This document shows, one piece after another, positions 2,908-46,500 of a DNA stretch of 64,000 nucleotides. Every line of letters begins with the position of its first letter. The stretch's first letter is position 1. Source of the DNA: Lycium barbarum (lineage: Eukaryota > Streptophyta > Magnoliopsida > Solanales > Solanaceae); contig NC_083340.1 in the NCBI RefSeq assembly GCF_019175385.1, forward strand, positions 13,094,336 to 13,158,335. The letters are read 5' to 3'. The position numbers and the translations under genes were made by a program. Under the pieces are notes generated by a model. That model did no database searches, was not told where the DNA came from, and was given only the letters and a program-made list of their open reading frames with translations.

Positions 2908-3156
2908 TCAAATTCCACAATAAGCCTTGAGAAGATCTCTAGCTCCGTAACCAATTCCGGATATAACATGTTTATAGTATCCAGCGACGTCATAGGGCTT
3001 GAAAAGCATCGGGTGTTCCTGATCCACTAGTTCTTTTGGGGCCTCTACGATGTAACCTGGTTTTGGCGAAGCAAATAACATAATGGAGGACCTATCAATG
3101 TCGCACGCCATTTTTACTCTGTGGAAAGAAGGTGATAGTTGACCATTTGTCCATGC

Positions 3157-3291
3157 CTGTAACAATTTACACAAAATACTTCCTTTTTCAGCTTGTTTTG
3201 ATAATATAATAAGTAATCTCAATCATGTCATGTATTTATTGGCTTCGTATAAATTTGAAATACAGGTAAGTTTTTACCGGGAATCACTTGC
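3157..3291 (-). other. Candidate GC-AG intron (intron 2 of the 2-ODD)
   Basis: On the minus strand the exon 2 end GATTCATTGATG is followed by GCAAGT, and the exon 3 start by TGTTACAG/GCATGG. Joining them gives DSLMAWTNGQL, the expected family sequence, in phase 0. The next GT downstream (CGGTAAAA) would add residues and break the frame. The intron is 135 bases. Confidence 0.7.
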
Positions 3292-3779
3292 CATCAATGA
3301 ATCCGCAACTAAAACGACAAAGGAATTAGGGGAAACATTGGTCTCAATCCAGTCTCCATTTTTCATCTGAACTTGCAATCCAGCTTGATCTTGTTTCACT
3401 ATGGTCAAGAATCCAGTGTCTGTGTGGCCAATCATTCTTGGTTTACTCACATTTTCACCTTGTGAAACTTCCTTCTTGTAATTTATAAGCAGCAAACAAA
3501 AAGAGTTTTGAGCCAAGAATTCATCAATGTAATTTTTTATCCCTAGACTCTCCAAAATCATCCTTTTCAGCATTTCATTCAATTCCATAAGTGACTTTGA
3601 GTAGGTATTTACCACATTACTGACAAATTAATTTACTTATATGATTAAATTAAACATATAAAACTTGTAGAAATAGTAATATAAGGTGATTGTATTTAAA
3701 TTAAAAGACGTGATGGAATAACAATCCTGGGATTACTATTTCTGAGGTAAAACAACAAAATGACAAAAATGCCATCCTC

Positions 3780-4260
3780 AAATACTCTTCTCCCAGGTAA
3801 AGGTTGGGCGAAAGACTAGGCGAGCTTACTGCTTATAACTGCCATGGTTTAAGCTTTAGGCTCCATAGCCGGAACTCTATTTAGGTATTAGGGACGGAAG
3901 GACGCCACTCAACACATATGGTGAGGTTCAATGCCTAACAAAAACGGCCAAAAGAAAAAGGAAAAAAGAAGGATATGCGGATGAGGAGACGAGAGAAAGA
4001 ACGCATGCATTGAGATTAATTCTGCTGTCAGAGGTTCGAGGATCTATGAAAAGACATTTAAGGTTAAGGTTACGAAGTAAGAGAAGTCCATTGTTGAGAG
4101 AAGTGGTGATCTCGTCTTTGCTTGCGGGGAGAGAGGAAGCTTTCAGACCAAATTCAAGTCCTTTAAAAACATCCTCCCGTACAACACATCTATCGTGAGG
4201 CGAATGTGGTAGCATGCACTCTAGCTAGTCACTGGAGTACCTGGGCCTCGTGTGAATTTG
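3780..4260. other. Segment of unlike composition in intron 1, possible organelle-derived DNA
   Basis: This stretch is richer in G and C than its surroundings and lacks transposon ends that I recognise. It holds an open frame on each strand (4010-4198 plus, 3928-4215 minus), neither matching a known protein. The texture reminds me of plant mitochondrial DNA, so a nuclear mitochondrial insert is one possibility. This is impression, not identification. Confidence 0.25.
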
Positions 4261-4619
4261 TTGGAAATGAAGATGCTTTTTTCGAATTCTCCTCCTTTGT
4301 TTGCTTATTTTCTTTTCTGCAAAGACTTTCTTAGGACTGAATCATCACGATTAGTTCCTTTAGAACCCCTTAAATTTCCTTCTTTAATTTGAAGTTACTT
4401 TTATTAGTGGAAAAAATTCTTTAAGAAAATTAAGTTTAAAATTGAAAAATTAAAGTTCCTATATCTGATGTAAAATCAAATAAATATTTTATATGATGTT
4501 TTATACATCCAATTATTAATCCAATGAACCAAATATCAACTAATAAAAGTATATCCACAAAATAAATACTGATAATTCAAGTATAACTTATTCACTGATC
4601 AAACGGACCCCTAACTCCT

Positions 4620-4890
4620 CTAGAAACACAAGTTTTTCCCACTGAAATTTAGTCGGAAATTTGTGCTATAAAATATGATTTTTCCATCTCATTTCCACTG
4701 AACAACTCATTGGAAAAACGCATTGTGGGAAACATGTTCCTATTGAAACACTAAGAAACTTCCTAATTTTTTCGTGTGAAAACACTATGGTTTAGGTTTT
4801 ACCCACCCACATTTAGTGGGAAATAGCCACTGAACATTTTTCAGTGGGAAATCAGTGGAAAAATAGAGATTTAATAGTAGTATAATTACT
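4620..4890. mobile_element. Partial CACTA-like non-autonomous element in 2-ODD intron 1
   Basis: The text from CTAGAAACACAAG through GTGGGAAATCAGTGG matches, in order, the left arm of the element at 15108-15400. Shared blocks are TTTAGT-GGAAATTTGT, GAAAACGCAT-GTGGGAAACA and TTCCTAATTTTT. No right arm follows, so only one half is present. Confidence 0.6.
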
Positions 4891-4943
4891 CTTACTCTTG
4901 CTTGAATCAATAATCTAATGCAAAGGAATGATCACAAAAGGTA

Positions 4944-5243
4944 TGTTGGGCCTCATAATAAAAATGACAGAGCAGCCTAGTTAGTTGCAAGCCCAAGTTA
5001 ATTACCCGGAATATTTAATTTCTTTTCTCTTTATTTAATTAGCTGTACTCATCTGTATTATAAGATTCTTAGAGGACTTATGTATATAACAACTGTGTAC
5101 AGCTGTCTAAAAGGCAACTGAATCATTTTTCATTTTGCAGAGAAGCTTTAGATACTTCCAGAATTTCTCTCTCTAAAATTCTTAGCTTCTCTTCATTTCT
5201 TCTTCATTTTTCTTTCCGCATTCGCCATTTTAGTATGTTAATA
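4944..5243 (+). repeat. Copia 5' LTR
   Basis: It begins TGTTGGGCCTCATAAT and ends GTTAATA, immediately before the primer site. It is 300 bases and differs from the 3' LTR by a few substitutions and small indels. The end is TA rather than the usual CA in both LTRs. Confidence 0.9.
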
Positions 5244-5255
5244 TGGTATCAGAGC
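5244..5255 (+). other. Copia primer binding site
   Basis: TGGTATCAGAGC is complementary to the 3' end of initiator methionine tRNA, the common primer of plant copia elements. It follows the 5' LTR with no gap. Confidence 0.9.
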
Positions 5256-5742
5256 AGAGATTCTGCTTCAGTATATGATTTCCAATTGAGCGATGTTACC
5301 CTCGTACAGTTTCATTGATATTTTTTTTTGAAATTTTGTTCTTCGCCGGAGCTCCGGTAACTTCATCGGTGATTTACGCGATTTGGTCAATTTGAAGCTT
5401 ATTGTGGTGTTTGTTGACACAGACACACATCAATTTTGGTTGGATTTTGAATTTTGACAGAGTTAGGGTTTGTTTTCAAGTTTTCAGCAAAAAATTAGGG
5501 TTTTTTTTATTTGGAGTCTTCACAATCGAGATATTTGACATTGTGATCTGTGCACAGCTCTGTTTCTACAACAAAATTGGTAACTTCGCCTGAACATTAG
5601 GGTTTCCAGGCTAGAATCTTTGCATTTGAGACTTGTGACATCACGCTCTGTCCAAGCTTAGTTTTTGCAACAATTTTGGTGCATTCGTTCCTTGAATCTT
5701 TTCTATTGATTGTCTATTAAAGTAGCTTTGGTTTGTATAAGT

Positions 5743-6880
5743 ATGGGAACTAATGCACCAGCTAATGGTTCCACTACTGCTACTTACGTTCCTGACTCTT
5801 CGAGTCCATTGTACCTTGCAATGTCTGATGTGCCTGGGATATCTCTTGTTCCTGTTCCTTTCTCTGGAACTGGGTTTGGGGGTTGGAGAAGAAATATGGT
5901 CGTTTCTCTATTCGCTAGGAACAAAATTGCTTTAGTAGATGGGAGTTTTACTAAACCTTTAGATGATTCACCCCAGCTTAGGCAATGGAGTAGGGTTAAT
6001 CATCTGGTGATGTCATGGATAACTCATTCCCTTACCCTTGAGATAGCTGAGAGTGTGCAGTACTCTGAAACATCACAGAGCATTTGGTCTCAGTTGAATA
6101 AGAGATATGGGACTGTGAATGAAACTAGAATATTTGAGCTTAAAAAGGAGATAGCTTCCACTAGTCAGGGGTGTTTGGATATTGCCTTCTATTTCAATAA
6201 GCTCGAGAAACTTTGGGATAAATTGAGCTTCATGCACACTAAGAATGCAAATAGGTGCATCTGTACTGCTAAAGAAGCACTTATCCAAGAGGAAGAAGAA
6301 AATAGGCTCTACCAATTCCTCATGGGGACTTAATGAGACTTAAATGAGGATCAAGGGTAACTTACTGATGATGGATCCCCTTCCCTCTTTGGACTCAGCC
6401 TATAGTATACTCTTACAAGATGAGAAACAGAGACAAGTTACTCCTAGCTGTCAGTTTAGTACTGAGTCTGCCTCCTTCACTGCACAAACTGCTTCTCCCA
6501 ATAGGCAATTTACTCAAAGAATTAGCTTTACTCCCAATAATCAGTTTCCCAAGTCCAATTTGGTGTGTAAGTATTGTAAGAAGGCTGGGCACCTCATTGA
6601 TAAGTGTTACAAGCTTCATGGGTTTCCCCCTCATTTTAAGTTCAACAAAGGCAACAAAACCATTGCAATTGTTGAGGTTCAAAGTGGAGGCACTTCTAAT
6701 CATGCTAGCTCCTCAGAGCAAGTTCCTACTCTCACCAAGGAGCAGTACAATCTGTTGATGCTCATGTTGCAGCAGACTCACATTTCAGATTCTCGGCTAT
6801 CAGCATTTGCAAATTTGAAATGTGAGTCTTTAGCTGATATCAGCATTTGCAAATTTTACTGGTATTATATCTTTAGCTGA
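5743..6880 (+). pseudogene. Copia Gag, broken
   Basis: The frame opens at ATG 5743 (MGTNAPANG). It carries the plant copia Gag domain, with GTGFGGWRRNM near residue 45 and IWSQLNKRYG downstream. Stops at 6331 and a few codons later, with a one-base shift, break the region that should read through NET-GNLLMM. Beyond it a CCHC zinc knuckle (CKYCKKAGHLIDKC, about 6565-6606) is intact. Near 6800-6860 a stretch with CAGCATTTGCAAATTT is duplicated, then the frame ends. The product would be the structural nucleocapsid protein. Confidence 0.85.
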
Positions 6881-6908
6881 TAAAATAAATAGTGTTTCTA
6901 GTGCTTGC

Positions 6909-8334
6909 ATGCTAGGTAATGTTCCTGATTGCATTTGGATCATAGATTCTGGGGCCACCCACCACATGACCTATAACATAGACTTTCTTTTTGACATTAA
7001 ACCCTTAGTCATCCCCTATCTAGTAAATTTACCAAATGGGTACAAAGTTAAAGTGACATGCGCTGGCTCTTTACAATTTCTCTCTTTCACCTTACACAAT
7101 GTTCTGTGTCTACCATCTTTTCACTACAACCTCATTTCTGTCCACAAATTTGTTACTCAATTGGATTGCATTGTCCTGTTCACTAAATTTTCCTGTCTTC
7201 TACAGGCCCCTTCAATGAAGAGGCCACTGGAAGTTGGCAAATTGGATGATGGACTCTACAAGCTCCAACAATCAGCAATCTGCTTTGCATAGCTGTGCTT
7301 CTGGTTCTTTTGATATTCCTGTTTCTGTTAATTCTGTTCATGTTTCTGTTAATTCTAATTGTTGTTCTTCTGTTACTACTTCTCCATTGCCTGATGTCAT
7401 CCTTATTCCCTGTATAAATCATTCCACTTCAAATAAAATGGAGATTTTATGGCACAATCGTTTAGGACATATACCCTTTGCTAGAATGAAGGATATTTCT
7501 TCCATTCTCTGTAAATTTTCTTCTCAACAATCTTTGTAGCCCAGACTATCTTTTCCTACTAGTTCTATCAAAACTGCTTCCCTTTTTCAACTGATTCATG
7601 TTGATTCTTGGGGACCTTATAGTACCTCTATATATGGTAGTTCCAAGTACTTTATTACCATTGTTGATTATTACACTAGATCTACTTGGACCCACCTTAT
7701 GGGGTCTAAAAGCAATGCATTTCTCTTGTTAAAAGCTTTCTTTGCCATGGTCAAAACACAATTTGATGCTTCAGTCAAGTCAGTTAGGAGTGACAATGCT
7801 CTAGAATTAGGTTCAAGCTCTTTCAATAGCCAATTTTTTCATGATCATTGAATTATGCACCAAACATCCTGTCCACATACACCCCAACAAAATGGGGTGG
7901 TGGAGAGGAAGCATAGATATTTTCTGAAAACCTCTAGGGCATTACTCTTTCAATCTAGATTACCACTCATGTTTTGGGGTGATTGTCTGCTTACTACTAC
8001 CTACCTTATTAACAGATTTCCATCCACCTTACTTCACAACAAATCCCCCTATGAACTTGTATATGGTCATGCTCCGTTTTTTTCTCATCTCCGAACTTTT
8101 GGGAGCCTCTGTTTTGCTACTGTCCCTAAGGTCTATAGGAAAAAGTTTCAGCCTAGAGCTGACCCTTGTGTATTCATTAGTTACCCCCTAGGAAAGAAGG
8201 GCTATCAATTGTATAATTTGACCACCAACACTACTCTTATATCTAGGGATGTAGTCTTTCATAAATCCATCTTTCCTTTTGCTCAGCCTTTAACCTCTTT
8301 TATTAGTGCATCTACTCTTCTTCTTTCTTCCCAG
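6909..8334 (+). pseudogene. Copia protease and integrase, broken
   Basis: The aspartic protease motif DSGATHHM follows IWI near 6945. The GAG-pre-integrase segment LWHNRLGHIPFARM is near 7447. The integrase core has DSWGPYSTS, VRSDNALE and, past a TGA at 7851, TPQQNGVVERKH, i.e. the expected D, D and E. Stops or shifts near 7290, 7537 and 7851 interrupt the chain. The region ends in the copia domain with RTFGSLCFAT and GKKGYQLYNL. Confidence 0.85.
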
Positions 8335-8376
8335 TAACCTGAACCTGATCCACCTTCCACTACTTCTCCTCTTTTA

Positions 8377-10110
8377 GTGTCTGATCTTCCTGATTTAGCT
8401 ATACCACCTACACATGACCCTGTCCCTCCAGTTGTTCCCTCAGTTGAACCTAGAAGATCCTCTAGGGATCATCACCTTCCCTCTCACCTTCAACCTTACA
8501 TCTGTACCATTTCTCCATTCCTATGTGGCTCTAGTTCCTTTTTTCTCTTGCTTTCAGTCATTAGATGGACCTACTGCATTTGAACCTGTCTTATCAGTAG
8601 GCTGCCTCAATTCCTGCATGGTAAGAGGCTATGCATAAGGAATTTGAGGCTCTTGAGGCCAACAATACATGGTCTGTTGGTTCCTTGCCACCTGGCAAGA
8701 AGCCTATATGCTACAAATGGGTTTATAAGGTCAAATATAAAGGTGATGAGTCTGTAGAAAGATACAAAACTTGGTTAGTTTGTAGGGGGACACTCAAGTA
8801 GAAGGTGTAGATTTCAATGAGACCTTTTATCCTGTCATCAAGTTTTCCACCATTAAATGTCTCATCTCTATTGCAGTTAAGAAAAAATGGCCTTTATTTT
8901 AATTGGGTGTGAATAATGCCTTTCTCCATGGTGATTTGGAGGTAGAGGTCTTCATGAAGTTACCACCTGGTCTTACTGTCTTTTCTCCTACTGGTTCACC
9001 TTTTTTTTTGCTACTTCAAAAGTCCCTTTATGGGCTAATACAAGCTTCAAGGAAATAGTATGCAAAGCTTTCTCAAGCTCTATGCTCAAGGGGTTACATC
9101 CACTCTATGAATGACTATTCACTGTTCATCAAGCAGTCCCGTTCCTCCATTGTTCTATTGGCAGTGTATGTTGGTGACATTATTTTGACTGGTGATGATT
9201 TGGATGAGATTACTAGTCTCAAACAGTTTCTGGACCTTCAATTCAAGATCAAAGATCTGGGTGTTCTTCATTACTTCTTAGGCACTGAGGTGGCTTATTC
9301 AGAGTCTGGTCTTGTCCTACTTCAAAAGAAAATTCATTCATGATCTTCTCTTAGAGTTCTATTGTGATTCTGTTAGCCCTGTGACCTGTCCTTTGGATTT
9401 GAATATGAAGTTAAAGGTTGTTGATGGTGATCTGTTATCTTCTCCTGAATCATACAGAAGCCTAGTTGGGAAATTAAATTTCTTGACCCACACCAGGCCT
9501 GATTTGTGTTTTGCTGTCCAGCACTTGAGTCAATTTTTGAAATCTCCCAGAACTCCTCACATGACTGCTGCCCTGCACATACTATGTTATCTTAAGGGTT
9601 CTTCTGATGTTGGTATTCATTTTAGCCACTCTCCTGATCTGTCCCTTTCTGCCTATTGTGACAGTGACTGGGCCGCTGTCCAGATACTCGTAGGTCTGTT
9701 TCTGGGTTCTGTGTATTCCTTGGTGACTCTCTAGTTGGATGGAAGGTAAAGAAGCAACCTGTGGTGTCTTTTTCCTCAGCTAAGGCTGAATATAGAGCCA
9801 TTAGTAAGGTGGTGGCTGAGTTGACTTGGACTGTTCGTTTGTTGGCTGATTTTGGTGTTTTTGTTTCTGGGACTGTCCTAGTTTATTGTGAAAATCAAGC
9901 GGCTATTCATATTGCTCATAATCCAGTATTTCATGAGCACACTAAGTATATCGAGGTGGATTGTCATTTCATTACAAAGCTTCAGGATGGCCTTATTTCA
10001 CTTCACCATGTTTCTACCACTGCTCAACTGGCAGATATATTCACCAAGCCCTTGACTGGGGTCCTCCATCATTCCATTTTGCCCAAGTTGGGTGTATTAT
10101 TACCCTCCAA
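8377..10110 (+). pseudogene. Copia reverse transcriptase and RNase H, broken
   Basis: The region starts in FEALEANNTWSVGSLP (about 8640) and runs through KWVYKVKYKGD. It is broken near 8798, at 8900 (TAA), near 9057 and near 9340. The catalytic box reads AVYVGDIILT (about 9165), where a working enzyme has YVDD, so an active-site Asp is lost. The RNase H part is recognisable from SAKAEYRAISK (9778) and YCENQAAIHIAHNPVFHEH through ADIFTKPL. Confidence 0.85.
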
Positions 10111-10111
10111 C

Positions 10112-10136
10112 TTGAGGGGGGGGGGGGGGGGAGGGG
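10112..10136 (+). other. Copia polypurine tract with a run of 16 G
   Basis: TTGA is followed by 16 G (10116-10131), then AGGGG and the 3' LTR. It is the plus-strand primer site; the length of the G run is unusual and is likely slippage. Confidence 0.85.
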
Positions 10137-10432
10137 TGTTGGGCCTCATAATAAAAATGACAGAGCAGCCCAGTTAGTTGCAAGCCCAAGTTAATGACCA
10201 GGAATATTTTCTTTTCTCTTTATTTAATTAGCTGTACTCATCTGTATTATAAGATTCTTAGGGGACTTATGTATATAACAACTGTGTACAGTTGTCTAAA
10301 AGGCAACTGAATCATTTTTCATTTTGCAGAGAAGCTTTAGATACTTCCAGAATTTCTCTCTCTAAAATTCTTAGCTTCTCTTCATTTCTTCTTCGTTTTT
10401 CTTTCCGCATTCGCCATTTTAGTATGTTAATA
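10137..10432 (+). repeat. Copia 3' LTR
   Basis: This is the second copy of the 300-base LTR, starting TGTTGGGCCTCATAAT and ending GTTAATA. The next bases AGATA form the target duplication and are the intron 1 start region of the 2-ODD. Confidence 0.9.
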
Positions 10433-11640
10433 AGATAAGCAAGCATAATACCTATTATGAGGATTTCCATCAGGCCAAAAGGTATTGAAAAGGTCTCAAC
10501 ACTTTCAGGGAGGAGTAAATCGGCAGTGCGCCTAATGTCATTGAATGGTGTGTGTGGAAGTAGGTCTTGGTACCGAGCAAAGGGTTTATCTAGATATTCT
10601 CTCAGTTTGGACTCCAATGGGAATATTTCTTTTAAAGTATCAAGCATGGCTTCTCCAATTTCCTTTGGGATCTTATCATATATTGCTTCAAAGCAACCAT
10701 ACTCTTTCAAGGCCTGGAAGACTTGAGCTTTTGTTGAGTCTCATTGTGCAGTACCTGGTTTCAAGTCTGGCTTGCAAAAATCTATGGTGGGAATCTTGGA
10801 GACCATGGATGAATTTACTAATATAGTGGATTTGAATACACTAAGCTGCCTTCAGATATATCAAATGGACATATTCTTTACTCTTCCTTTCCAAATATAT
10901 ATATACTGGTTGTTGACACCCAATTTTGTCCCTCTTTTATTTAATTTACTCGGGCTTCTAAATTTACTGACGAGCTAAATACTTTATTTTTTACAATATT
11001 TTATTGCCACTACTACTAATATCATTACTTTTATTTTCAACATTACAAGTATTACTTTACTACAAATTTTAGATGATTCGTCATCATTTCATTTTTTTCG
11101 GGTTTGGACTCGTTAAATTAATTACAAGACAACACTTTGCAAAATATTTTTTTATATATTAATTATTTATTGTCTTTACATAATATATATTATACCATTT
11201 ATTAAATTAGAAGCCCAAAAATAATTAAATAGCGGAGGAAGGATCAACAATTTTCAGCCAAATTAATGACCCGAAATGCAAATACAATATTATGTCCCTA
11301 TCCAAATAAACAACCCACATTTTAATACCCAACCCACATTATATCAGCCCATTTCGAATAAAAATCAGCTCACTAACGACCAGCCCAATTCCCTTACCCG
11401 GTCCAGCCCAATTCTATTTTTACCCGACCCGGTCCGGCCCACTACAATTAAAACCCCTAAAACTCTCCTCCTCTTTCATTTCCCTCCCCTTCTCTCTTTC
11501 TCCTTCTTCTAGCCGCTCCCACCTCCCACCATTTCCACTCCATCCACTTCTCCTTGTCCCCCCACGCCTCATGCTCCTTCCACTTCTCTTTGTCTCCCAC
11601 TCCTATTGCTCATACGCTCCTCTCTCCCCTCATATTTTCC

Positions 11641-15349: not shown

Positions 15350-15411
<62 letters not shown>

Positions 15412-16700: not shown

Positions 16701-16716
16701 ATAAAATAGAGTAATA

Positions 16717-28273: not shown

Positions 28274-28589
28274 TGATATGGAATGAAAAAAATACACAGA
28301 AAATCAAACGGACAATGAATGAAAACTCATTGCATTAATTCATTACATTGTTATTGAAAAATAAAAAACTACATCTCTATTTATAGAGAAATAAAAAGAA
28401 TAAAATAAAATAAAATATATTATTTTCTTTATAGATACTAAACTAAAAGGAAACTAAATATTTTATAATTAATGCCGTAACTAGACTTAAAAGGAAACTA
28501 AATGTGGCAGAATATTGTTAGACTAAAAAGGAAGTAAATATTTTTACCATCAATTAAATCATAACGTAGAAGAAAAGTAAATTTTAATA
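28274..28589 (-). repeat. 3' LTR of the split copia-type element
   Basis: Plus-strand text runs from TGATATGGAATG to AAATTTTAATA. It matches 40891-41204 throughout, including CATTGCATTAATTCATTA and TATAGATACTAAACTAAAAG. Confidence 0.85.
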
Positions 28590-28990: not shown

Positions 28991-29012
28991 TGGGTTAAAA
29001 TTGGATTGAAAA

Positions 29013-32000: not shown

Positions 32001-32093
32001 GGGCCATTGTGCCATTTGATAGCCTTGTCGGCTTTTTGACATCTTTGATAGCCTAGTTGGCTTTTGATACATTTGACAGCCTTGCCGGCTTTT

Positions 32094-32174
<81 letters not shown>

Positions 32175-32354
32175 TGTGTGTGTGTGTGTCTGCACATGGT
32201 TGCGTTGAAATGCGGCTGATGCAGTTTGATATAGTTTGAGACGACATATAGCATTTTAGCCGTATATACTATTTGGATGTGATTCGATATGTACAGGTAT
32301 GTCAGGGTGCCCAAGTAGGGCACTAGTCACGGCCTATGGGGTTGGGTCGTGACA
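29013..32354 (+). repeat. Tekay 5' LTR
   Basis: It starts TGTTACGTCCCGTATTTTTA and ends GGTTGGGTCGTGACA, 3342 bases. It contains short 'AGCCTTGTCGGCTTTTTGA' repeats (31965-32095) and a TA run. Open frames inside occur in both LTRs but resemble no protein. Confidence 0.95.
32097..32171. repeat. TA microsatellite in 5' LTR
   Basis: About 37 TA units; the matching run in the 3' LTR (40555-40606) is shorter, so the length changed after insertion. Confidence 0.95.
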
Positions 32355-32358
32355 GAAG

Positions 32359-32370
32359 TGGTATCAGAGC
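32359..32370 (+). other. Tekay primer binding site
   Basis: TGGTATCAGAGC, complementary to initiator methionine tRNA, four bases after the LTR end. Confidence 0.9.
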
Positions 32371-32559
32371 AGTTTGTCCTTGGGATGTCTACAGACCGTG
32401 TCTAGTAGAATCTTGTTTATCGATGTGTTGTGCACCACATCGATAAACAGGAGGCTACAGGACATTTAGGATGTTTCCTTCCTTTGAATCTTAGATCGTG
32501 AGATAGAGCTGTGCTATTAGGATGACTCTGTTCTGATCAGTTGTTATGTTTTTCTTTCA

Positions 32560-34710
32560 GTGATGCCTCCGAAAAAGGCGGCAGCCGCCCAGAAGGGCAA
32601 GTCATCAGCGGCCGGAGAGACTAGCCGGGCTCGGAAGGGTACTCGGACCCTTGCTCAGATGATGCGTGATATGGCGCCCCGGCCAACAGACTCTGCTACG
32701 TCTTCATCATCAGAGGAGTCTGGAGCAGCTTCACCATTAGCTCCAGAGGCTCCAGCTCCCGCGCCTCCAGCACCCCAGCCAGGGGCGGAGGATAGGACAT
32801 TGAGGGAGGTCGTGCAGCTATTGACTACTTTGGTAGCGAGACAGGTTCGCAGACGCGGGCAGAGGGATTATGATGATGATGACAGGCGTGATAACCTTAG
32901 GGTTCGAGACTTTCAGACATGCCGTCCCCCAGAGTTTTACGGGTCTAGGCCTGAGGAGGACCCCCACGACTTCATTCGGGGGATTCGGCGCTCATTAGAT
33001 TTGGTCAGGGCTTCGGAGACCGAGTCTGTTGAGTTGGCCTCGCACAGATTGCGAGATGTTGCTGCCAATTGGTATGAGTCTTGGGAGCTATCCAGGGGTA
33101 AGAGTGCATCCCCAGCTACTTGGGATGAGTTCGTGGCTGCTTTTACCCGCCACTTTTTGCCCCCGGAGTTACGACGGGCGCGGGTTGATAGATTTCTACA
33201 GTTGCAGCAGAGAGGCTGGAGTGTTCGCGAGTATAATTTGGAGTTTGATTCTCTGGCTCGATATGCCCCTGCTATAGTAGCGGATATGGCTGACCGTATG
33301 CACCGGTATGTGATAGGATTGGACCGCTACTTGATCGACAGTTGCATGGCGATGGCGTCACAGACAGATATGGATATCGCCCAGTTACAGGCCCACGCTC
33401 AGGGTATGGAGGATCGACACAGGGCTGATTATTCTGGTAGGGATCGAGACAGGAGGCCGCCCAAGAGGGCCAGGTCCGCTGGGTATTCGGGAGGTTCTCG
33501 GGGCGGACACCCTCAGCAGCAGCCGTCAGGCAGATATTTTCCTCCGTCAGGCCGGGGTGCACAGTCAGCCGGCAGACGATTTGATAGTGCAGGACCATCT
33601 AGGGCTGGTCAGAGTTCTAGAGCTTCAGGTTCACAGACAGCCAGAGGTCCCAGCCAGTCCAGACCACCCAGGCCCCGTTGTTCTTATTGCGGTAAATCGC
33701 ACCCAGGGGAGTGCTACCGAGCTACAGGAGCTTGTTTTTCTTGCGGCCGTCAGGGCCATATTATGCGTGATTGTCCAATGTCGGGTGGCTCTGGCAGTAC
33801 AGTTCAGCCGACGGGATCAGCTGCAGGTTCATCTTCTACTCCCTCAGCTGTGCGCCCTGCGGGGCGAGGTATGCCGGTTCAGGCCGGTCGCGGTCGAGGC
33901 CGTGGCGGTGTTTCAGGTTCTAGCGGTCCTTCGAACCGCATATATGCATTGGCTAGCCGCCAGGATCAGGAGGCTTCGCCAAACGTTGTCACAGGTACTT
34001 TACTGGTTTTCTCCCGATCTGTGTATGCATTGATTGATCCTGGTTCGACTTTATCGTATATTGCTCCACTTATTGCTAATGAAATTGGGATAGAGTCTGA
34101 GCCGATAGAGCCTTTTGAGGTAGCTACACTTGTAGGGGATTCTGTTATAGCCAGACAGGTTTATCGGGATTGTTCTGTTATCATATCTAATCGTTGTACT
34201 AAAGTTGATTTGATAGAGTTAGATATGCTTGAATTTGATGTTATTATGGGCATGGACTGGTTAGCGTCCTGTTATGCTAATGTTGACTGCCAGCAGAAGG
34301 TAGTTCGTTTCCAGTTCCGAGGGGAACCAGTTATCGAGTGGTCCGGGAGTACAGCGTCGCTGAGGGGTAAGTTTATTTCATACCTCAAGGCTAAGAAGAT
34401 GATTCAGAAGGGTTATATTCATCATTTGGTCCGTGTTCACGATACTACAGCCGAGGCACCCATTTTGCAGTCAGTTCCGGTTGTCAATGAATTTTCAGAT
34501 GTATTCCCAGATGAGCTTCCGGGTCTTCCGCCTGAGCGAGAGATAGACTTTGCTATTGATTTGTTTCCAGATACGCAGCCCATATCTATTCCTCCGTACA
34601 GGATGGCACCGGCAGAATTAAAAGAATTGAAGGAACAGTTGAAAGATTTATTAGAAAAAGGTTTCATCAGACCAGTACATTACCCTGGGGAGCACCGGTA
34701 TTATTTGTGA
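32560..34710 (+). pseudogene. Tekay Gag, protease and start of reverse transcriptase
   Basis: The frame of 716 codons is open and begins at ATG 32560 or 32563. Residues 120-290 hold the Gag capsid domain ([20 protein letters not shown]). An arginine- and serine-rich stretch is followed by a CCHC knuckle ([14 protein letters not shown], about 393-406). The protease motif is [13 protein letters not shown] near 490. The RT lead-in ends [16 protein letters not shown] and [21 protein letters not shown] one-base insertion near 34680 then takes the frame to a false stop just before the WGAPVLF region. Confidence 0.93.
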
Positions 34711-35356
34711 GAAAGAAAGATGGGTCACTGCGGATGTGCATTGATTACAGGCAATTAAATAAGGTGACTATAAAGAATAAGTATCCCTCCCCCGGATTGA
34801 TGATTTATTTGATCAGTTGCAGGGTGCCAAATATTTCTCGAAGATAGATCTGCGTTCGGGTTATCACCAGGTATGGGTACGAGAGTCTGATATTCTGAAG
34901 ACTGCTTTTAGGACCCGGTATGGGCATTATGAATTCAGAGTTATGTCTTTTGGGCTGACTAATGCTCCAGCGGTATTCATGGATTTGATGAATCGGGTAT
35001 TTCGGCCTTTCCTTGATATGTTCGTGATTGTGTTTATCGATGATATATTAGTTTATTCACAATCAGCAGAGGAGCATTCTGATCATCTGAGGATAGTGCT
35101 TGGCACTCTTCGGCAGCAGAAATTATATGCTAAATTTTCGAAATGTGAATTCTGGTTAACTTCTGTGGCATTCTTGGGGCATATAGTCGGAGCAGATGGT
35201 ATTCAGGTTGATACGCAGAAAATTGAAGCTGTACAGAATTGGCCCAGGCCTACTACACCTACAGAGGTACGCAGTTTTTTGGGTTTGGCCTGTTATTACA
35301 GAAGGTTCGTAGAGAATTTTTCTTCTATTGCGGCGCCATTAATAAGGTTAACCTAG
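34711..35356 (+). pseudogene. Tekay reverse transcriptase core
   Basis: [20 protein letters not shown] reads in one frame from 34710. A one-base loss near 34790 (TCCCTCCCCCGG) shifts to the frame beginning [20 protein letters not shown]. The catalytic box [10 protein letters not shown] (about 35032) keeps both aspartates. The frame ends at TAG 35354-35356 where related elements have Gln in LTQKA. Confidence 0.93.
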
Positions 35357-37423
35357 AAGGCAACGAAATTTCAGTGGACCGATGCCTGTGAGCGCGACTT
35401 TCAGATGTTGAAGCAAAAATTAATTACAGCTCCAGTTTTAGCTCTCCCAGAAGGGCCAGACGGGTATGTGGTTTATTGTGATGCCTCTGGTATGGGTTTG
35501 GGTTGTGTGTTAATGCAGCACGGTCGAGTCATAGCCTATGCTTCCCGGCAGCTCAGACCGCACGAGAAGAATTATCCCACTCATGATTTGGAGTTAGCCG
35601 CGGTTATTCATGCTTTGAAGATTTGGCGGCATTACTTATATGGGGTCCACGTTGATATTTATACGGACCATAAGAGCCTCCAGTATATTTTCAGACAGAA
35701 AGAATTGAATTTGCGACAGAGGTGGTGGTTAGAGTTGCTGAAAGATTATGATGTTGATATTCTATACCACCCAGGGAAAGCTAATGTTGTAGCAGATGCG
35801 CTTAGCCGCAAGTCCATGGGCAGTTTGATTGATGTGCAGTATGATAAGAAAGAAATGGTTCGTGATATTCATCAGTTAGCCAGTCTTGGAGTTCGGTTAG
35901 CCGATTTTGGAGATGCTGGGATTTCTGTTCGAGGAGTGGCCGACTCCTCTATTCTGGGTGAGATAAAGCGGCGTCAGTATGAGGATCCTGTTCTGATTCA
36001 GTATAGAGATGCAGTCCGTGAAAAAGAGCAGACCCCGTTTAAGATTACATCTGATGGAGTACTATTATTCAGGGGCAGATTATGTGTACCTGACGTTGCG
36101 GGGCTGCGACAACAGGTTATGGGTGAGGCACATCATGCCAGGTATTCTGTTCACCCAGGGTCGACGAAAATGTATCATGATCTTCGATGTCTGTATTGGT
36201 GGGACGGTATGAAAAAGGACATAGCAGAGTTCGTTGCCCAGTGCCCAAATTGTCAGCAGGTGAAAATTGAGCATCAGAAGCCCGTTGGGTTATTGCAGGA
36301 AATGGAAATACCAGCGTGGAAGTGGGAAGTAATTAATATAGATTTCACTGTAGGCTTGCCTCGCACTCCACGGAGGTACGACTCCATTTGGGTTATCGTC
36401 GATCGGCTGACAAAATCATCCCATTTTCTTCCAGTTCGGACTACCTACACAGCTGAAGATTATACCAGATTATATATTAAGGAGATTGTGAGACTGCACG
36501 GAGTTCCTGTGTCTGTTATTTCCGATAGAGGTGCCCAGTTTACAGCTAAGTTATGGAGGTCATTCCAGGAGGGATTGGGGACCCAGGTGAGCCTGAGTAC
36601 AACATTTCATCCCCAGTCCGACGGACAGGCCGAGCGCACTATTCAGACATTGGAAGATATGTTGCGTGCCTGTGTTATTGATTTTAGGGGTAGCTGGGAT
36701 GACCATTTGCCGCTTGTTGAATTTGCTTATAATAACAGCTACCACTCCAGTATTCAGATGGCACCATATGAGGCTTTGTATGGCAGGAAATGCAGATCTC
36801 CGATAGGTTGGTTCGACGTGGGTGAGATTCAGTTAATTGGTCCAGATGTGGTCCAGCAGGCAGTCGATAAAGTGAAACTGATTCGAGAGCGATTATTAGC
36901 GGCCCAAAGTCGACAGAAATCTTATGCTGATAAACGACGTCGACCGTTAGAGTTCCAGATTGGCGATTGGGTTTTCCTGAAAGTGTCACCTATGAAAGGT
37001 GTTATGCGATTTGGCAAGAAAGGAAAGCTCAGTCCGAGATATATTGGGCCTTATCTGATTATTCGTAAAATAGGCAAGGTAGCCTACGAATTGGATCTGC
37101 CAGCTGACTTAGGAGCGGTTCACCCGGTATTTCACGTCTCTATGCTTCGTAAGTGTATTGGTGACCCTTCCAAAATCTTTCCTTCAGATGATATGCAGGT
37201 CACAGAGGAGCTATCTTACGAAGAGCAGCCTATAGCCATATTGGATCGTCAGGTAAGAAAGTTGCGAAATAAAGATGTGGCTTCGGTTAAAGTGCTGTGG
37301 CGGAATAATAACCGCGAAGAAATGACCTGGGAGGCGGAGGAGCAGATGAAGAAAAAGTATCCTCACCTATTTCCAGTACCTTCAGGTAATTCAAATTCTT
37401 TGTTTGCCTATGTTGATTTGTGA
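35357..37423 (+). pseudogene. Tekay RNase H, integrase and chromodomain
   Basis: After the stop the frame is open for 689 codons. RNase H has [25 protein letters not shown] and ADALSRK. Integrase has the zinc-binding [11 protein letters not shown] and CPNCQQVK, and core residues Asp in NIDFTVGLP, Asp in SDRGAQF and Glu in GQAERTIQ. The C-terminus [10 protein letters not shown] and [16 protein letters not shown] is chromodomain-like, typical of chromoviruses, and ends at TGA 37421-37423. Confidence 0.93.
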
Positions 37424-37512
37424 ATGATTGGTATGTGATGGCTATAAAAGAAACTCCCCCGAGTTTAAGTAAGATTCGTATCGTTAATCCAACATTCGAG
37501 GGCGAATGTTCT

Positions 37513-37526
37513 TAAAGGGGGGAGGA
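37513..37526 (+). other. Tekay polypurine tract
   Basis: AAAGGGGGGAGGA directly precedes the 3' LTR. Confidence 0.9.
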
Positions 37527-40500
37527 TGTTACGTCCCGTATTTTTATACATTGGGACAACCCGGATTAACTATGACAATTTAAGGCCAAGACTATTTCGG
37601 GGATTTGAAGTCGGGACTTTTGACCATTTGATTTTATTTTGAGACATAAGTTATATATGAAATTGATGGCATTGAACACTTAGGAAAAATTGGGACCACA
37701 ATTCATAAAATTCGAATTTAAAAATGTGGTGCAAAAATTGCCATGGGGCCGTGTAAGTTGAGATGGTCCCACACCTTGTGTGGCCAATTTTAATTGGTCC
37801 AACACATTGTGTGGGCCAAAGACATCTAAGGGATATAAGTGTACTTAAATAGATTACTCTAAGTCATCTTTCCCTCATTACACTTCAACACCCCAACCAA
37901 GAAAAACCAAATCAAGTTCTAGCTTCCCCAAAATTATTTCTTTGGTATAGACCCACTATATTGAAGTCCCTAAGTAGCGTGGAAGTATTGTTTGGATCAT
38001 TCAACCATTCATTGTGTCCAATTGCAAAACCCTAGCCAATTGTGGTATTGAAAAACAAAGGTAAGATTTCATCTTGTTTATATATTGTGAATCTTGTATG
38101 CCTATTGTAGTATGCTAAAATGGATAGAAATCATGAAATATAGAATGTTGAAGTTGGGTTGTGTGTTTGGCATGTTGGCCGTGTAAAGTGGGGGTGTGTT
38201 GTGTGGTATTGGATTGATGAATTTATTCTTGTATCATGTTAAATTGTTGTAGAATGGAGAAGAGAATGCAAATCGTCGATATATGAATATATGTGTGCAA
38301 TGTAGCCGTGTGTAGCCCCAAATGTTTGGCAAAGAATGAATTTATATCGCTTAGCATCGTAATGGTTATTGTGATGACTTGTAGGTTGGAAATGGGAATT
38401 TAATGTCCCAAATTGACATAGTAAGCGTTGCAGACTGATTTGGAGAACTTTGTGCATTGAATGAAATTCGTATATATAGGATCCTTAACATATGTATATA
38501 TGTGTGTTGTGAACGAATGTGAGTTTTATAAGGTGTCGAAGATCGCATTACTACCGCTTAGTATGTTAGTTGTCGTCGTCTTGAATTCTAGTCTTGAAAT
38601 GAACATTTAATGACTTATGATTGATGTGAGGTTGTGCGGGCTGTTTTGAGGCTTATCGTGCGTTGATGTAATTGGTATATTATATGAGAATAACATCGTT
38701 ATATTGTGGATTGTTGAGACAAAACATGACTTGAAAATGAGGAAAATAAAAAGAGGGCTGCTCTCGGCCAAAGGGCTGTTTTCGGCCAATTGGGAGAAAA
38801 ATTGTGAATTGTTTAGAATGTCCTAGAATATTGTTGGTAAAGATTCGGGTTGATAATTAAATGTGTGAGCGATATTGTGGCTTGAATGTAAGCCGTTGAA
38901 TTGAATATTTGGAAAGTTGTCGAATGATGAAAAAGAGAGCTATTAATGTTATTTTGCCTTCCGAATTTATTATTGATGTTGCTAGGTTGGTTATTGTGGT
39001 TGTTTTTGTTGATTTTTAAGCGAGATAAATTCTCGGGGTGGCCTATTTACAGGGGAAGTGCTGCCGAGTTTTCTGTAGAATTTAGAGTAAGTTGGAATAA
39101 ATAATTGCTTAAGTGCCTATGGTTAATATTGGGTATTCATTGGCACATTTTGTAGACCTTGGGGAGCCCGAGGCGTAGATTTGGAGTAGCTTTAGATTGG
39201 CTAGCTTGGAAGCGCGTTCGAGGTATGTAAGGCAACTTCCTTTCTTTTTGGCATGTCTTAGTTTTTCATAGGCTAAATTAGAGCCTTAAGGAAATTCCAA
39301 ATCCGACATCCGAGCATGTTATGATCCGTATATGTTCTTTGGAATTCTTATGCATGATTTGATGAAATATGAATCTTTATGTATTCGAAATAATTGTTCT
39401 CTGAACTTTGCACCAAAAGGGTTTCATTTTAAAGAATTCGCAAATTTTGAATGTCATATCTTTCGTATAAATGCTCGGATTGCTCCAATATATTTTTATA
39501 AAAGTTTGCATTACGCATAACGAGTATGTTTTCCATAAGCAGGCCCGACTTGGGTAAATTCCCGTCCGTGGGTCCCGCGACTTCCCTTTATGAAATTCGG
39601 GAGCTTTTGAAAGAATTTGTTAAGACTATTATTTCGATTTTCAAATATGATCATTTTGCTTATGTTTGAATTTATGATATTGATTTTATGCATATGACTA
39701 CTCACGACTCTATTCGTGCATTCTGCTATTCCTTTCGCCGAGTCCCGGGCCGGTTCTGTTATCGTGCGCGCTTTGATATACTCCGGAGTTATGCTGTGTT
39801 TATGGTCCTCCGAGCTACTCGCTAATGAGGGTCGGGTTCCACTTATGTTTGGTGTTATGCTGTATATGGTGTTATGTTGGGTTATGATATGTGACGGGGA
39901 TTCGGAGAATTTAAACTTACATCTGGAGTTATGCTGTGTATTGGCGCCATTGACAGGCGGGCGACCATATTCTTTTGTACCCTATGCATTACTTACATAT
40001 TTTTGAAAGTAAACAAATTTTGATATGTTGGATTTGCACTTATGTTTGATACTCCCATTTTATTTAAAGTCTCCTATATGCTTTCTGTATATTCTGCTTT
40101 GCATACTCAGTACATATTTCGTACTGACCCCCCTTTCTTCGGGGGGCTGCGTTTCATGCTCGCAGGTACCGACGCACAGTTTGGTGATCCACCGCTTTAG
40201 GACACCCCTTTTGCTGTTGGAGTGCTCTTCTCCTTTCAGAGCATATCTGTTGGTATATCTTTTGTTCGCTATGTTTGTATATATATATATATTCGTTCAG
40301 GGGTACGGCGGGGCCCTGTCCCGCCATATGACTCGTTTGGTCTGTATAGAGGTCTGTAGACGTATTTGTGGGTGTGTGTGCCTACTTTTGTACAGTTGGG
40401 TTTGTATGATCTCATTTGTTATGGCAGCCTTGTCGGCGTGCATTTTGTATATGTGTTTTGGGCCATTGTGCCATTTGATAGCCTTGTCGGCTTTTTGACA

Positions 40501-40552
40501 TCTTTGATAGCCTTGTTGGCTTTTGATACATTTGACAGCCTTGCCGGCTTTT

Positions 40553-40619
<67 letters not shown>

Positions 40620-40795
40620 CGTGTGTGTGTCCGCACATGGTTGCGTTGAAATGCGGCTGATGCAGTTTGATATAGTTTGAGACGGCATATAGCATTTTAG
40701 CCACATATACTATTTGGATGTGATTCGATATGTACAGGTATGTCAGGGTGCCCAAGTAGGGCACTAATCACGGCCTACGGGGTTGGGTCGTGACA
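37527..40795 (+). repeat. Tekay 3' LTR
   Basis: It starts TGTTACGTCCCGTATTTTTA and ends GTTGGGTCGTGACA, 3269 bases. It differs from the 5' LTR by scattered single bases, a loss of about 53 bases near 37890, and a shorter TA run. Confidence 0.95.
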
Positions 40796-40876
40796 GAAAA
40801 GGTAGGGTTAAAAGTGGTTGAAGAAGTTCTTTTTCTTCATCAATTAAGTCCCAGATTCATTAAGATCAATAAACCT

Positions 40877-40889
40877 GGCTCTGATACCA
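40877..40889 (-). other. Primer binding site of the split copia-type element
   Basis: On the minus strand it reads TGGTATCAGAGCC, one base past the 5' LTR at 40891. Confidence 0.85.
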
Positions 40890-40890
40890 C

Positions 40891-41204
40891 TATTATGGAA
40901 TGAAATATTTAGAGAGAAAATGGAAGAAAGAATGAATAATAAATCATTGCATTAATTCATTATATTGTTTCTTGTATTGAAAAATAAAATACTACATCTC
41001 TATTTATAAAGAGAATAAAATAAAAGAAAATATATTATTTTCCTTATAGATACTAAACTAAAAGGAAACTAAGTAATTTACTATTAATGTAGTAACTAGA
41101 CTTAAAAGGAAGCTAAATGTTGCAAAATATTCATAGACTAAAAAAGAACTAAATCTTTCTATCATCAATTAAATCATAAAGTAGAAAAAAATTAAATTTT
41201 AACA
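40891..41204 (-). repeat. 5' LTR of the split copia-type element
   Basis: On the minus strand it begins TGTTAAAATTTAATTTT and ends ATTCCATAATA. It is the partner of 28274-28589. Confidence 0.85.
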
Positions 41205-41239
41205 AAGAGTTGGGCTGAACACCCTCTGCCTGACAAGAA

Positions 41240-41370
41240 GGGGTGGCTCAGATGGTAAGTATCTACCTTCCACCTCGAACCCGAAGGTTGTGGGTTCGAG
41301 TCACCAAAGAAGCAAAAGGGAAGCTCCCGGAGGAATGGGTTTGAAAAAAAAAAAGAAGAAGAAGAAGAAA
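41240..41370 (+). mobile_element. tRNA-derived SINE
   Basis: GGGGTGGCTCAGATGGTAAG contains a pol III A box, and GGTTCGAGTC at 41293-41302 is a B box at the right spacing. A 3' A-rich tail with GAA repeats follows at about 41340-41370. This fits a tRNA-derived Solanaceae SINE. Confidence 0.8.
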
Positions 41371-43642: not shown

Positions 43643-46500
43643 TTATGCTGAGATCTTCTTGAATCTCACTAGACAATTTTCAGGAGGCTCGCCTTTGCTC
43701 GGTGGCTTAACTTGCTCAAGCCTGCATCATAGCGATAAAATTGAAATATTCTTTGATCAGTAATTGATATTCTATATAATTTATTTCATAAAATGTATAT
43801 ATATAATTTGTGAATTACCTGTAGTTAAGAAGAAAGTAATGACCAACTACTAAATTCGTAAGCTTTGCCAAATTGGCTCCTGGGCACATTCGGGGACCTA
43901 CTCCCAAAGGAAGAAAGGAGGTTGGCTTGATCTCTGCATCCTGTAAAATTATAGTGTTGTTCACTTGATACTATAACATCTTTGGGAATTTAATCATTCA
44001 TGTGCAGTAATTACAAGGATATTGACTAAATGATGCAAATTTATGAACAAAATTAATAGTCTGTTTGGTCAAGTTTTTGAGAAGGCAATAGTATTTATTT
44101 TCTTAAAAATACTTATTTCAGAGAGTTGAGGTGTTTAGCCTAGAAAATAAAAGTGCTTTTGAATAATAGCAAAAGCAAATTTTTAGAAACTAAAAAGATA
44201 AATTTTCTCCATAAGCACTTCTGGAATTTTGGCCGAACACAAATTACAACCCTAATTGACAAAAATATTTTTCAGATTGATTAGCTAAACACTAGCAACT
44301 ACTCTGTAAAAGTACTTTTTCAAAATAAGCAGATTTTGACAGTTTGGCAAAAAACTTACATCCCATCTTGAAGGATTAAATTCCTTAGGTTTCACATAAG
44401 TGTTAGGGTCCATATACCAATGCCCTGACGTTGTCAAAACCTTCCACCCCTTAGGTATGGTGTACCCTGCGCAATGGATATTGATTAAATCATTTTAGTG
44501 TATCATTAACATTAATTGGCTTTGAGATAAGAGAACCAACCATTTATGTTAACAGTAGTTTTTGCAATTCTAAAGAAGATTGTTTCAGTGCTACCAAAAC
44601 GTAGTGTTTCATGATATACCTGTCAATTTTGAAAGAGATATAGTACTTAGTACAAAAGGACTTGATCTTATTGAACTTGAAAAGAAATATTTTACATTGT
44701 GAATGGTGTGCTGTGCCTATTAAAGAGAAATTAGGCCTTACGTTTGAAAGATACTTCATCTGTCCAATCTCGTCGAAAGTAAGGCCTGCATCTGGAGATG
44801 GTCTTCTGTTAACTATTTCTTCTTGTTCCTCCTGAAAACAGAGAAATTTGTCTTAATAAATTAATTTAAAAGACCCTCTCAACTTTATTGCACTTTTTGA
44901 ATAAAATAAAGTAGTGATCCATTGATAACGTACTTTTGCTTTCTGCAACAACTCAGGGTGTTTTTCCAGATGCATAATTGTCTTTATGGCAACCAGAGCA
45001 ACAATTTCATAACCACCAAATGTATAGGAAAGTAGCACTTTAATGATATCCTCATCACTAAATCCATTTCCATGTTCATCTTGAGTGTCTAGCATCGCGT
45101 CCAGCATGCTCTTGGGCCTGCCTTGTTTGTTTGCAATCATCACTTTTCTTTGATTTATTACGTCTTGAAGCATCCTACCTACTGCTTTTCTAGCCTGAAA
45201 CCATAAAAACAGAGAAGTTACACAAACGAATAGTTCAAATTTTGTGCCCGGTCACTTATAACAATAGCAAGCCTAATACTCTTCACAGCAAGCATAATAC
45301 GGTAACCTGAACACTAGCAAAAAAAAAAAGATAATATAAATTAGCAAGAGATAAGTTCTGTAGCTAAACAGCAAAATCGGCTGCTAATCCTATTTAGCGA
45401 CCAATTAGATGGATTGTTAAAATGTTAGCTACAAAGCAATTTAGCGATGAATCGACGGCGGATTATTAAAAATTTATGTTGACTACGAGTAAATAGCAAT
45501 GAAGTTCGTAGCTCATTCCAGATTTTTTTAGTGGAAAGATAGAAGAGTAACCTGATTCACCCTATTAAATTGGCATGATGGTGTAAATTTCTTTAGAACG
45601 TCAGTATATAAAACTTAAATCCATTTTGCCCCTATTAGATATATTATCTCTTTTTCCTCTTTTTTGGTGATTAATCAAATTTTAAACTCTAGATCTTACT
45701 AATTACCTTGACTCCCCTGTAGAAAGCAAATCCGGGGATATTAACGGCCAAGCTTTTGTAAGCTTTAAACCTGTGTTGATTCTCCTTGAAAACATAGTCA
45801 AGCACTTCTCGAGAAACTCCATCTTCGCCGCCTACAAGAACTTGCATAAGCACCTCAAATGCAGGCCTTTTCATCTCAGAGAGCAACTCGAGGGGTTCAT
45901 CTGTGGCAAGCCATTTGTCGAAGGAACCTTTCACGATTTTGTTCACGCTGTCAAAGTAGTAGGACAACGATCCGTGAGTTTTTATCGCGTTTGCTGCTGT
46001 TCGACGAAGAATCTTGTGTTCTTGGTTCTCTTGATTTCCTAGGAGGTTCAACATGTAGTCTGGAAATGCTACGGCAAAATTCTCTTCATCCATCAGGATT
46101 TTCCTGCACGTTTCGGGCGTTGTGACAATAATGCTTGGCCTTCCAAACATGTGTCCCGTGTACATCCCTCCTGGCCCGAACCTAATTAGTTACACACCAA
46201 TGTGAACTTCAAATTCAAATTCAAAACAGAACATCAAATTAATACAACAATAATAATTGTGTCATGAGAAACGTACCGAGTAGAAAAGTAAGCTGCAAAT
46301 GCGTCGAGATTTCCACCGACGTAACATTTCAAGAGAAAAAGCATATTACCAACGAATGGCCAGCCCATGTCACCTGGAGGCAAACGACTTTCCTCTGGAC
46401 TAAGTTTGAGTAAATAATACCAGCCATTTACTCTCTTTAGCACATTAATAAAGGTTAAAATCCCTATTCCCAGAGCTGTGCACAAGTACACTAACTCCAT
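43643..46500 (-). CDS. CYP88-like: Cytochrome P450, CYP88-like (CYP85 clan), eight exons, intact
   Basis: Exons are 46500-46277, 46181-45707, 45194-44934, 44831-44742, 44619-44541, 44466-44360, 43940-43819 and 43721-43643, with GT-AG introns in consistent phase, giving 478 residues plus stop; CYP88A enzymes are slightly longer. Residues 1-30 form an ER anchor. The hinge LPPGDMGWPFVGNM (40-53) is a CYP88 hallmark. FGRPSIIVTTPETCRKIL follows in exon 2. ExxR is E354-R357 in HETLRFGS. KEFNPSRW is the PERF-like block. The heme loop LGVGPRMCPG (424-433) binds iron through Cys 431. Two positions are odd: the I-helix reads FGGYEIVAL at 292-299, with Ile where Thr usually assists oxygen cleavage, and Leu 424 replaces the heme-loop Phe. 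CYP88A members oxidise ent-kaurenoic acid in gibberellin synthesis; this divergent form more likely serves specialised metabolism, CYP88C-like by recalled literature. Intron 2 holds a CACTA MITE; intron 6 a repeat. No lesion is seen. Confidence 0.92.
44050..44340. repeat. Repeat insertion in CYP88 intron 6
   Basis: Text from GTCTGTTTGGTCAAGTTTTT to GTTTGGCAAAAAAC has near-inverted ends (TTTGGTCAA, TTTGGC) and internal AAGTGCTTTT and AAGTACTTTTT phrases. It resembles 17640-17880 and is probably a hAT-like MITE. Confidence 0.45.
45312..45533. mobile_element. CACTA-type MITE in CYP88 intron 2
   Basis: The 222-base element begins CACTAGCAAAAAAAA and ends TTTTTTTAGTG. GAA flanks both ends (45309-45311 and 45534-45536), the 3-base duplication expected of CACTA elements. 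The interior has several TTTAGCGA-type phrases. Confidence 0.75.

What the first reader, a model, noticed from the sequence alone, without database searches (positions are those of the whole stretch)
2908..46500. CYP749-like, CYP88-like and 2-ODD genes together: candidate withanolide-type cluster
Seen: three oxidase genes of distinct families, all on the minus strand, with no other host gene between them; the spacing is mainly transposons. Established: these families decorate terpenoid and steroid-like scaffolds. Recalled and to be verified: work on Withania and Physalis places CYP88C, CYP749B and CYP87G P450s, with a 2-ODD, dehydrogenases and the sterol isomerase 24ISO, in a withanolide cluster. 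Inference: this window is part of such a cluster.
Basis: partly seen in the sequence, partly recalled or inferred. Interest (0 to 1): 0.88.

Follow-up and report, generated by a model that had tools for sequence, protein, structure and literature searches.

The report
Goji withanolide-type cluster, one dead gene
This stretch of the goji plant genome holds two intact steroid-type oxidase genes and one broken one that resemble genes grouped together in the known withanolide cluster of related nightshades, so it is probably goji's version of that known cluster.

Summary
The window is Lycium barbarum (goji): both P450s match database proteins at 100%, on a 149,041,705-bp sequence. The CYP749 gene (20526-22932, 509 aa) and the CYP88 gene (43643-46500, 478 aa) are intact. 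The CYP749 groups with Withania and Datura proteins (100/99). The ODD groups with a Datura gene two locus-tag numbers from the Datura CYP749. The CYP88 is CYP88C-type but forms its own Lycium+Datura branch. This fits the cluster published for Withania, Physalis and Datura (PMC12246201). 24ISO, CYP87G, SDR and acyltransferase could not be sought outside the window, and Capsicum has similar genes without known canonical withanolides. One odd trait: eight Solanoideae CYP749 proteins carry lysine where 107 of 120 listed relatives carry an I-helix acid. Verdict: new member of a known kind.

The parts
20526..22932 (-). CYP749B-type P450 gene, intact, 5 exons (22932-22671, 22586-22360, 22040-21808, 21724-21346, 20954-20526), 509 aa; candidate sterol C-26 oxidase
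   Evidence: Splice model with GT-AG introns and open frame; identical to L. barbarum P0001; Pfam p450; clade with Withania and Datura 100/99
43643..46500 (-). CYP88C-type P450 gene, intact, 8 exons (46500-46277, 46181-45707, 45194-44934, 44831-44742, 44619-44541, 44466-44360, 43940-43819, 43721-43643), 478 aa; reaction unknown
   Evidence: identical to L. barbarum P0121; Pfam p450; pairs with Datura P0135 at 100/100
2908..10806 (-). AOP1-like 2-ODD pseudogene, 3 exons (10806-10452, 3619-3292, 3156-2908); premature TGA 10743-10741, one base short at about 10489-10486, GC donor after exon 2
   Evidence: tblastn with intact L. ferocissimum P0241 and Datura P0242; coordinates and splice sites; tree
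4944..10432 (+). copia element in ODD intron 1; LTRs 4944-5243 and 10137-10432, 6 mismatches and one gap over 300 columns; PBS-like TGGTATCAGAGC after the left LTR
   Evidence: Self-BLAST, flanks, copia gag Pfam match
29012..40798 (+). gypsy element with chromodomain between the two P450 genes; LTR pair about 29012-32357 and 37526-40798, about 98% identical
   Evidence: Self-BLAST; Pfam gag, protease, RNase H, integrase, chromo

Best explanation
The window is a segment of the L. barbarum counterpart of the Solanaceae 24ISO/withanolide gene cluster. Likely mechanism, by homology and not shown here: 24ISO makes 24-methyldesmosterol, CYP87G and CYP88C enzymes hydroxylate C-22 and C-1, and this CYP749B-type enzyme oxidises C-26 so that an SDR can close the lactone. 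The CYP88 here is an extra CYP88C-type paralogue of unknown reaction, probably not the C-1 step. The AOP1-like 2-ODD belonged to the set but is dead in this genome.
For: 100% match to L. barbarum proteins on one 149,041,705-bp sequence that also carries three further CYP88C-type genes (P0122, P0126, P0129) and two ODDs (P0268, P0275). CYP749 clade with Withania and Datura 100/99. ODD clade 100/100 with Datura HAX54_012124, two locus tags from CYP749 HAX54_012126 on one scaffold. Withania CYP749, CYP88 and ODD records share contigs of 81.7 and 12.4 Mb. The published cluster has CYP749B2 as C-26 oxidase and CYP88C7 as C-1 hydroxylase. Reference titles in a Lycium review name withanolides of L. 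chinense.
Against: No 24ISO, CYP87G, SDR, acyltransferase or sulfotransferase in the window by Pfam scan of its ORFs, and no means to look beyond it. The ODD is dead. The CYP88 is not a direct counterpart of a listed Withania protein. Capsicum, not known for canonical withanolides, has the related CYP749 and ODD on one contig. The Withania ODDs on the 12.4-Mb contig group with L. barbarum P0268, not with the window ODD. Large contigs show the same chromosome only, not distance.
Confidence: 0.75

Rival explanations
1. A decaying remnant: L. barbarum has lost or is losing the pathway, and the two P450 genes are open only because the loss is recent.
For: ODD with a stop, a frameshift and an inserted element; window CYP88 alone has Ile after the I-helix acid among 117 ungapped listed rows; Datura clade-mate of the CYP88 is listed as a 279-aa protein.
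Against: Both P450 genes have complete frames and splice sites; three more CYP88C-type genes with database proteins lie on the same sequence; reference titles report withanolides in L. chinense.
Confidence: 0.15
2. The cluster is live but makes another 24-methyldesmosterol- or sterol-derived product in Lycium, as petunia does with petuniasterones; the Lycium+Datura CYP88 branch gives the different step.
For: Separate CYP88 branch; petunia has a 24ISO-CYP87-CYP88 cluster and other steroids; Capsicum has related genes without known canonical withanolides.
Against: Datura, which shares the CYP88 branch, is a withanolide producer in the cluster paper; the CYP749 is closer to Withania than to petunia.
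Confidence: 0.08
3. Chance neighbours from large families, with no shared pathway.
For: P450s and AOP1-like ODDs are large families; many Solanaceae ODD paralogues are listed.
Against: The clade-mates of the CYP749 and ODD are near neighbours in Datura, and share a chromosome-size contig in Capsicum galapagoense.
Confidence: 0.02

Closest known systems
Withanolide biosynthetic gene cluster of Withania somnifera, Physalis and Datura (Hakim et al. 2025, PMC12246201)
   Same: CYP749B, CYP88C and ODD families together; the window CYP749 and ODD have clade-mates in Datura on one scaffold.
   Different: Lycium was not in its synteny set; here the ODD is dead and the CYP88 is of a separate Lycium+Datura branch; 24ISO, CYP87G, SDR, AT and ST not seen in 64 kb.
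24ISO-containing clusters of Petunia (PMC10619512)
   Same: 24ISO, CYP87, CYP88 in one cluster and DOX (2-ODD) and acyltransferase genes in PhERF1-regulated clusters (passages); petunia B3RFJ8 and B3RFK1 are relatives of both window P450s.
   Different: Petunia CYP749 is 64% identical and keeps Glu in the I helix; petunia makes petuniasterones and petuniolides.
Second CYP749-ODD pair of Datura (HAX54_024612 and HAX54_024611)
   Same: CYP749-type P450 next to an AOP1-like ODD on one 1,262,990-bp scaffold.
   Different: Both members fall in other clades than the window genes.

Membership tests
Withanolide (24ISO) gene cluster | 24ISO in the cluster | not testable with these tools
   Absent from the window ORFs tested; own-genome search unanswered.
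Withanolide (24ISO) gene cluster | CYP749B P450 grouping with producers, without tomato, potato or tobacco orthologues | tested here: met
   Clade with Withania and Datura 100/99; Nicotiana row outside; no Solanum row among the 120 listed hits. Capsicum and Anisodus join at 100/100.
Withanolide (24ISO) gene cluster | CYP88C-type P450 | tested here: met
   In the 24-row Solanaceae clade (100/100) with petunia B3RFK1 at 59%. That B3RFK1 is named CYP88C1 and B3RFJ8 CYP749B1 is recalled, not from a call.
Withanolide (24ISO) gene cluster | CYP88 of the C-1 hydroxylase orthogroup CYP88C7 | tested here: inconclusive
   Window gene pairs with Datura P0135 only; it shares an 8-row set (99/97) with the Withania P0125 / L. 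barbarum P0122 branch.
Withanolide (24ISO) gene cluster | 2-ODD gene | tested here: met
   Present as a pseudogene of the clade of Datura HAX54_012124.
Withanolide (24ISO) gene cluster | CYP87G, SDR, acyltransferase, sulfotransferase members | not testable with these tools
   None seen in the window; the rest of the chromosome could not be searched.
Withanolide (24ISO) gene cluster | Conserved gene neighbourhood with producers | tested here: met
   CYP749 and ODD clade-mates on one Datura scaffold of 921,622 bp with locus tags 012126 and 012124. CYP88 neighbourhood not shown: Datura P0135 is on another, 120,211-bp scaffold.
Withanolide (24ISO) gene cluster | Co-expression of cluster genes | not testable with these tools
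   No expression data held.

The most novel reading that the evidence does not exclude
The C-26 oxidase lineage of withanolide biosynthesis works without the canonical I-helix acid. The eight Solanoideae CYP749B-type proteins found, three Withania ones among them, have Lys (Lys321 here) where 107 of 120 listed CYP749 relatives, petunia's included, have Glu or Asp. If the active Withania enzyme is one of these, a plant P450 hydroxylates and further oxidises C-26 with reversed charge at its proton-relay site, a change fixed before Capsicum, Datura, Lycium and Withania split and perhaps a step in recruiting the enzyme to lactone formation.
Probability: 0.45. Interest if true: 0.62.

Novelty: new member of a known kind. 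Interest (0 to 1): 0.42.

Why it matters
It gives goji, a food and medicinal crop, a concrete candidate locus for withanolide-type steroid lactones, and suggests that this AOP1-like 2-ODD is dispensable there. The CYP88 branch shared by Lycium and Datura is an uncharacterised enzyme beside a valued drug pathway. The lysine at the catalytic acid position of the whole C-26 oxidase lineage allows a sharp mechanistic test on an enzyme that is already characterised.

Tried and rejected
An early reading that the copia element sits in the ODD coding exon was rejected: exon 1 ends before a GT donor at 10452 and exon 2 starts after CAG at 3619, so the element is in intron 1.

The ODD as an intact gene was rejected. 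A sequencing error cannot be excluded, but a stop and a frameshift in one exon, and no L. barbarum protein above 56% among the 120 hits listed of 122, speak against it. Members hidden inside a 90% cluster are not visible.

An ERF-type promoter motif (CMGCMNNCCA, recalled) was searched: 7 matches in the window, 3.29 expected, 6 of 100 shuffles reach 7; none lies in the first kilobase upstream of the three start codons. The petunia paper held none of the terms P-box, P box or GCC box. No evidence.

A compensating charge swap for Lys321 was sought among clade-specific columns (8 rows against 96): 43 such columns, several shared with petunia, no obvious partner.

Papers: (Lycium, withanolide, 24ISO) gave only PMC12246201; one search listed 15 of 22 papers and one search listed 20 of 23, among whose titles I saw no Lycium withanolide cluster; one search found no paper with two of CYP749B1, CYP88C1 and petunia; none of the 6 papers holds CYP749B2. 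This concerns the held open-access library only. PMC9589361 (term search) held none of four terms. PMC8602270 (term search) has no 24ISO.

Structure prediction was not run: fold membership is not in doubt. Selection tests were not run: no coding DNA of the relatives was held.

Full report
What the window is. Both spliced P450 translations are 100% identical over their whole length to Lycium barbarum proteins P0001 ("CYP749A22-like") and P0121 ("beta-amyrin 11-oxidase-like"), both listed with a longest contig of 149,041,705 bp. My gene models equal those proteins as printed.

Anatomy. CYP749 gene: minus strand, 22932-20526, five exons, 509 aa. CYP88 gene: minus strand, 46500-43643, eight exons, 478 aa. 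All introns of both are GT-AG and there is no internal stop. Pfam p450 matches both. The 2-ODD runs from 10806 to 2908 in three exons: 10806-10452, 3619-3292 and 3156-2908. Against the intact L. ferocissimum protein P0241 (90% overall), exon 1 matches 102 of 106 residues with a stop codon inside, then the match switches frame. The HxD and the distal His are still encoded. Exon 2 is followed by a GC donor (GCAAGT). Intron 1 holds a copia element whose LTRs differ at 6 positions, plus one gap, over 300 columns.

Nothing else found in between. tblastn of the 360 proteins held at that point found only these three loci. Of 36 left-over ORFs of 75 aa or more, none reached a Pfam cut-off. A gypsy element with chromodomain separates the P450 genes. 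Beyond 46.5 kb I found reverse-transcriptase, gag and integrase fragments. ORFs under 75 aa and non-coding DNA were not tested against Pfam.

Family placement. CYP749: tree of 26 of the 120 listed hits. The window protein, Datura HAX54_012126 and three Withania proteins form a clade (100/99). Anisodus, Capsicum and an unnamed protein join at 100/100, and petunia B3RFJ8 next (100/100). CYP88: tree of 40 of 120. A Solanaceae clade of 24 rows (100/100) contains four L. barbarum genes listed on the same 149-Mb sequence. The window gene pairs with a 279-aa Datura protein (100/100). That pair lies in an 8-row set (99/97) with two other branches: L. barbarum P0122, Withania P0125 and petunia B3RFK1; and Capsicum with two Anisodus rows. 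The order among the three is open. L. barbarum P0126 and Withania P0142 are in a further clade. ODD: tree of 44 of 120 plus the window. The window ODD, two L. ferocissimum proteins, Datura HAX54_012124, two Capsicum proteins and an unnamed one form a clade (100/100). I chose the rows, mainly Solanaceae with some outgroups.

Conserved neighbourhood. Datura HAX54_012124 (ODD) and HAX54_012126 (CYP749) share a 921,622-bp scaffold. Withania records place two CYP749 (P0003, P0009) and three CYP88 records (P0125, P0136, P0142; P0136 is a shorter near-copy of P0125) on an 81.7-Mb contig, and one CYP749 (P0004) with three ODDs (P0272, P0283, P0285) on a 12.4-Mb contig. Capsicum galapagoense has CYP749 P0006 and ODD P0286 on one 316.5-Mb contig. 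For the large contigs this shows the same chromosome only, not distance. Against a simple picture: the Withania ODDs on the 12.4-Mb contig group with L. barbarum P0268, not with the window ODD, and the Datura clade-mate of the CYP88 is on another scaffold (120,211 bp).

Comparison with print. In Hakim et al. 2025 (PMC12246201) I read the abstract, introduction, the phylogenomics and dihydroxylation sections, the discussion, and part 1 of the lactone section, with term searches; its supplements were not open to me. It describes a cluster with 24ISO, CYP87G, CYP88C, CYP749B, ODD, SDR, AT and ST genes. CYP87G1 acts at C-22, CYP88C7 at C-1, and CYP749B2 with SDR at C-26. Two other CYP88C genes of a different orthogroup were inactive in their test, and only one of two CYP749B2 homologues of Withania cluster 1 was active. 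Lycium is not among its synteny species. Its introduction says that Capsicum, where 24ISO co-occurs with P450 and ODD genes, is not known as a producer of canonical withanolides, so cluster-type genes alone do not prove production. The petunia paper (PMC10619512, passages) reports 24ISO, CYP87 and CYP88 in one cluster and DOX genes among clustered PhERF1-regulated genes. Reference titles in a Lycium review (PMC6152755, passages) name withanolides of L. chinense.

How it probably works. Shown: two intact P450 genes and one dead ODD of the right lineages. Inferred: the CYP749 is the C-26 oxidase. Inferred more weakly: the CYP88 is a side-branch enzyme, since P0122, the near counterpart of Withania P0125, or P0126, that of P0142, is a better CYP88C7 candidate. 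Not shown: 24ISO nearby, expression, product.

An unexpected trait. At the I-helix acid position, among the 120 listed CYP749 relatives (of 1386 found), 101 have Glu, 6 Asp, 8 Lys, 4 Leu and 1 Gly. The eight Lys proteins are the members of the 8-row Solanoideae clade. The lysine aligns without a nearby gap to the Asp of FAGHDT in CYP4B1, a solved structure. In the CYP88 set (120 listed of 626 found; 3 gapped), the window protein alone has Ile after the acid; the Datura fragment has Thr. That the acid-alcohol pair serves proton delivery in P450s is established knowledge, recalled here.

Verdict. New member of a known kind, in a species outside the synteny set of the cluster paper, with a dead ODD, a separate CYP88 branch and a lineage-wide lysine worth testing.

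Noticed in passing
20526-22932 (residue 321 of the CYP749): Lys replaces the I-helix acid in the eight Solanoideae CYP749B-type proteins found; petunia B3RFJ8 keeps Glu.
   Followed up: partly
43643-46500 (residue 297 of the CYP88): Ile at the position after the I-helix acid, where the other 116 ungapped listed relatives have Ser, Pro or Thr.
   Followed up: partly
Datura stramonium scaffold of 1,262,990 bp (P0022, P0259): A second CYP749-type gene (HAX54_024612) with the next-numbered ODD (HAX54_024611), both in other clades than the window genes: CYP749-ODD pairing may be older than this cluster.
   Followed up: no
28277-28587 and 40894-41202: A direct repeat pair (83.6% identical) just outside the LTRs of the gypsy element.
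   Followed up: no
57370-57837: Tandem array of a 46-bp unit, about 10.6 copies.
   Followed up: no
47012-50450: Two duplicated non-coding stretches upstream of the CYP88 (47012-47232 with 49666-49890; 48484-49070 with 49877-50450), about 89% identical.
   Followed up: no
Lycium ferocissimum sequence of 70,723,904 bp (P0241, P0245): Two ODDs of the window ODD's clade lie on one L. ferocissimum sequence; one is the intact counterpart of the goji pseudogene.
   Followed up: no
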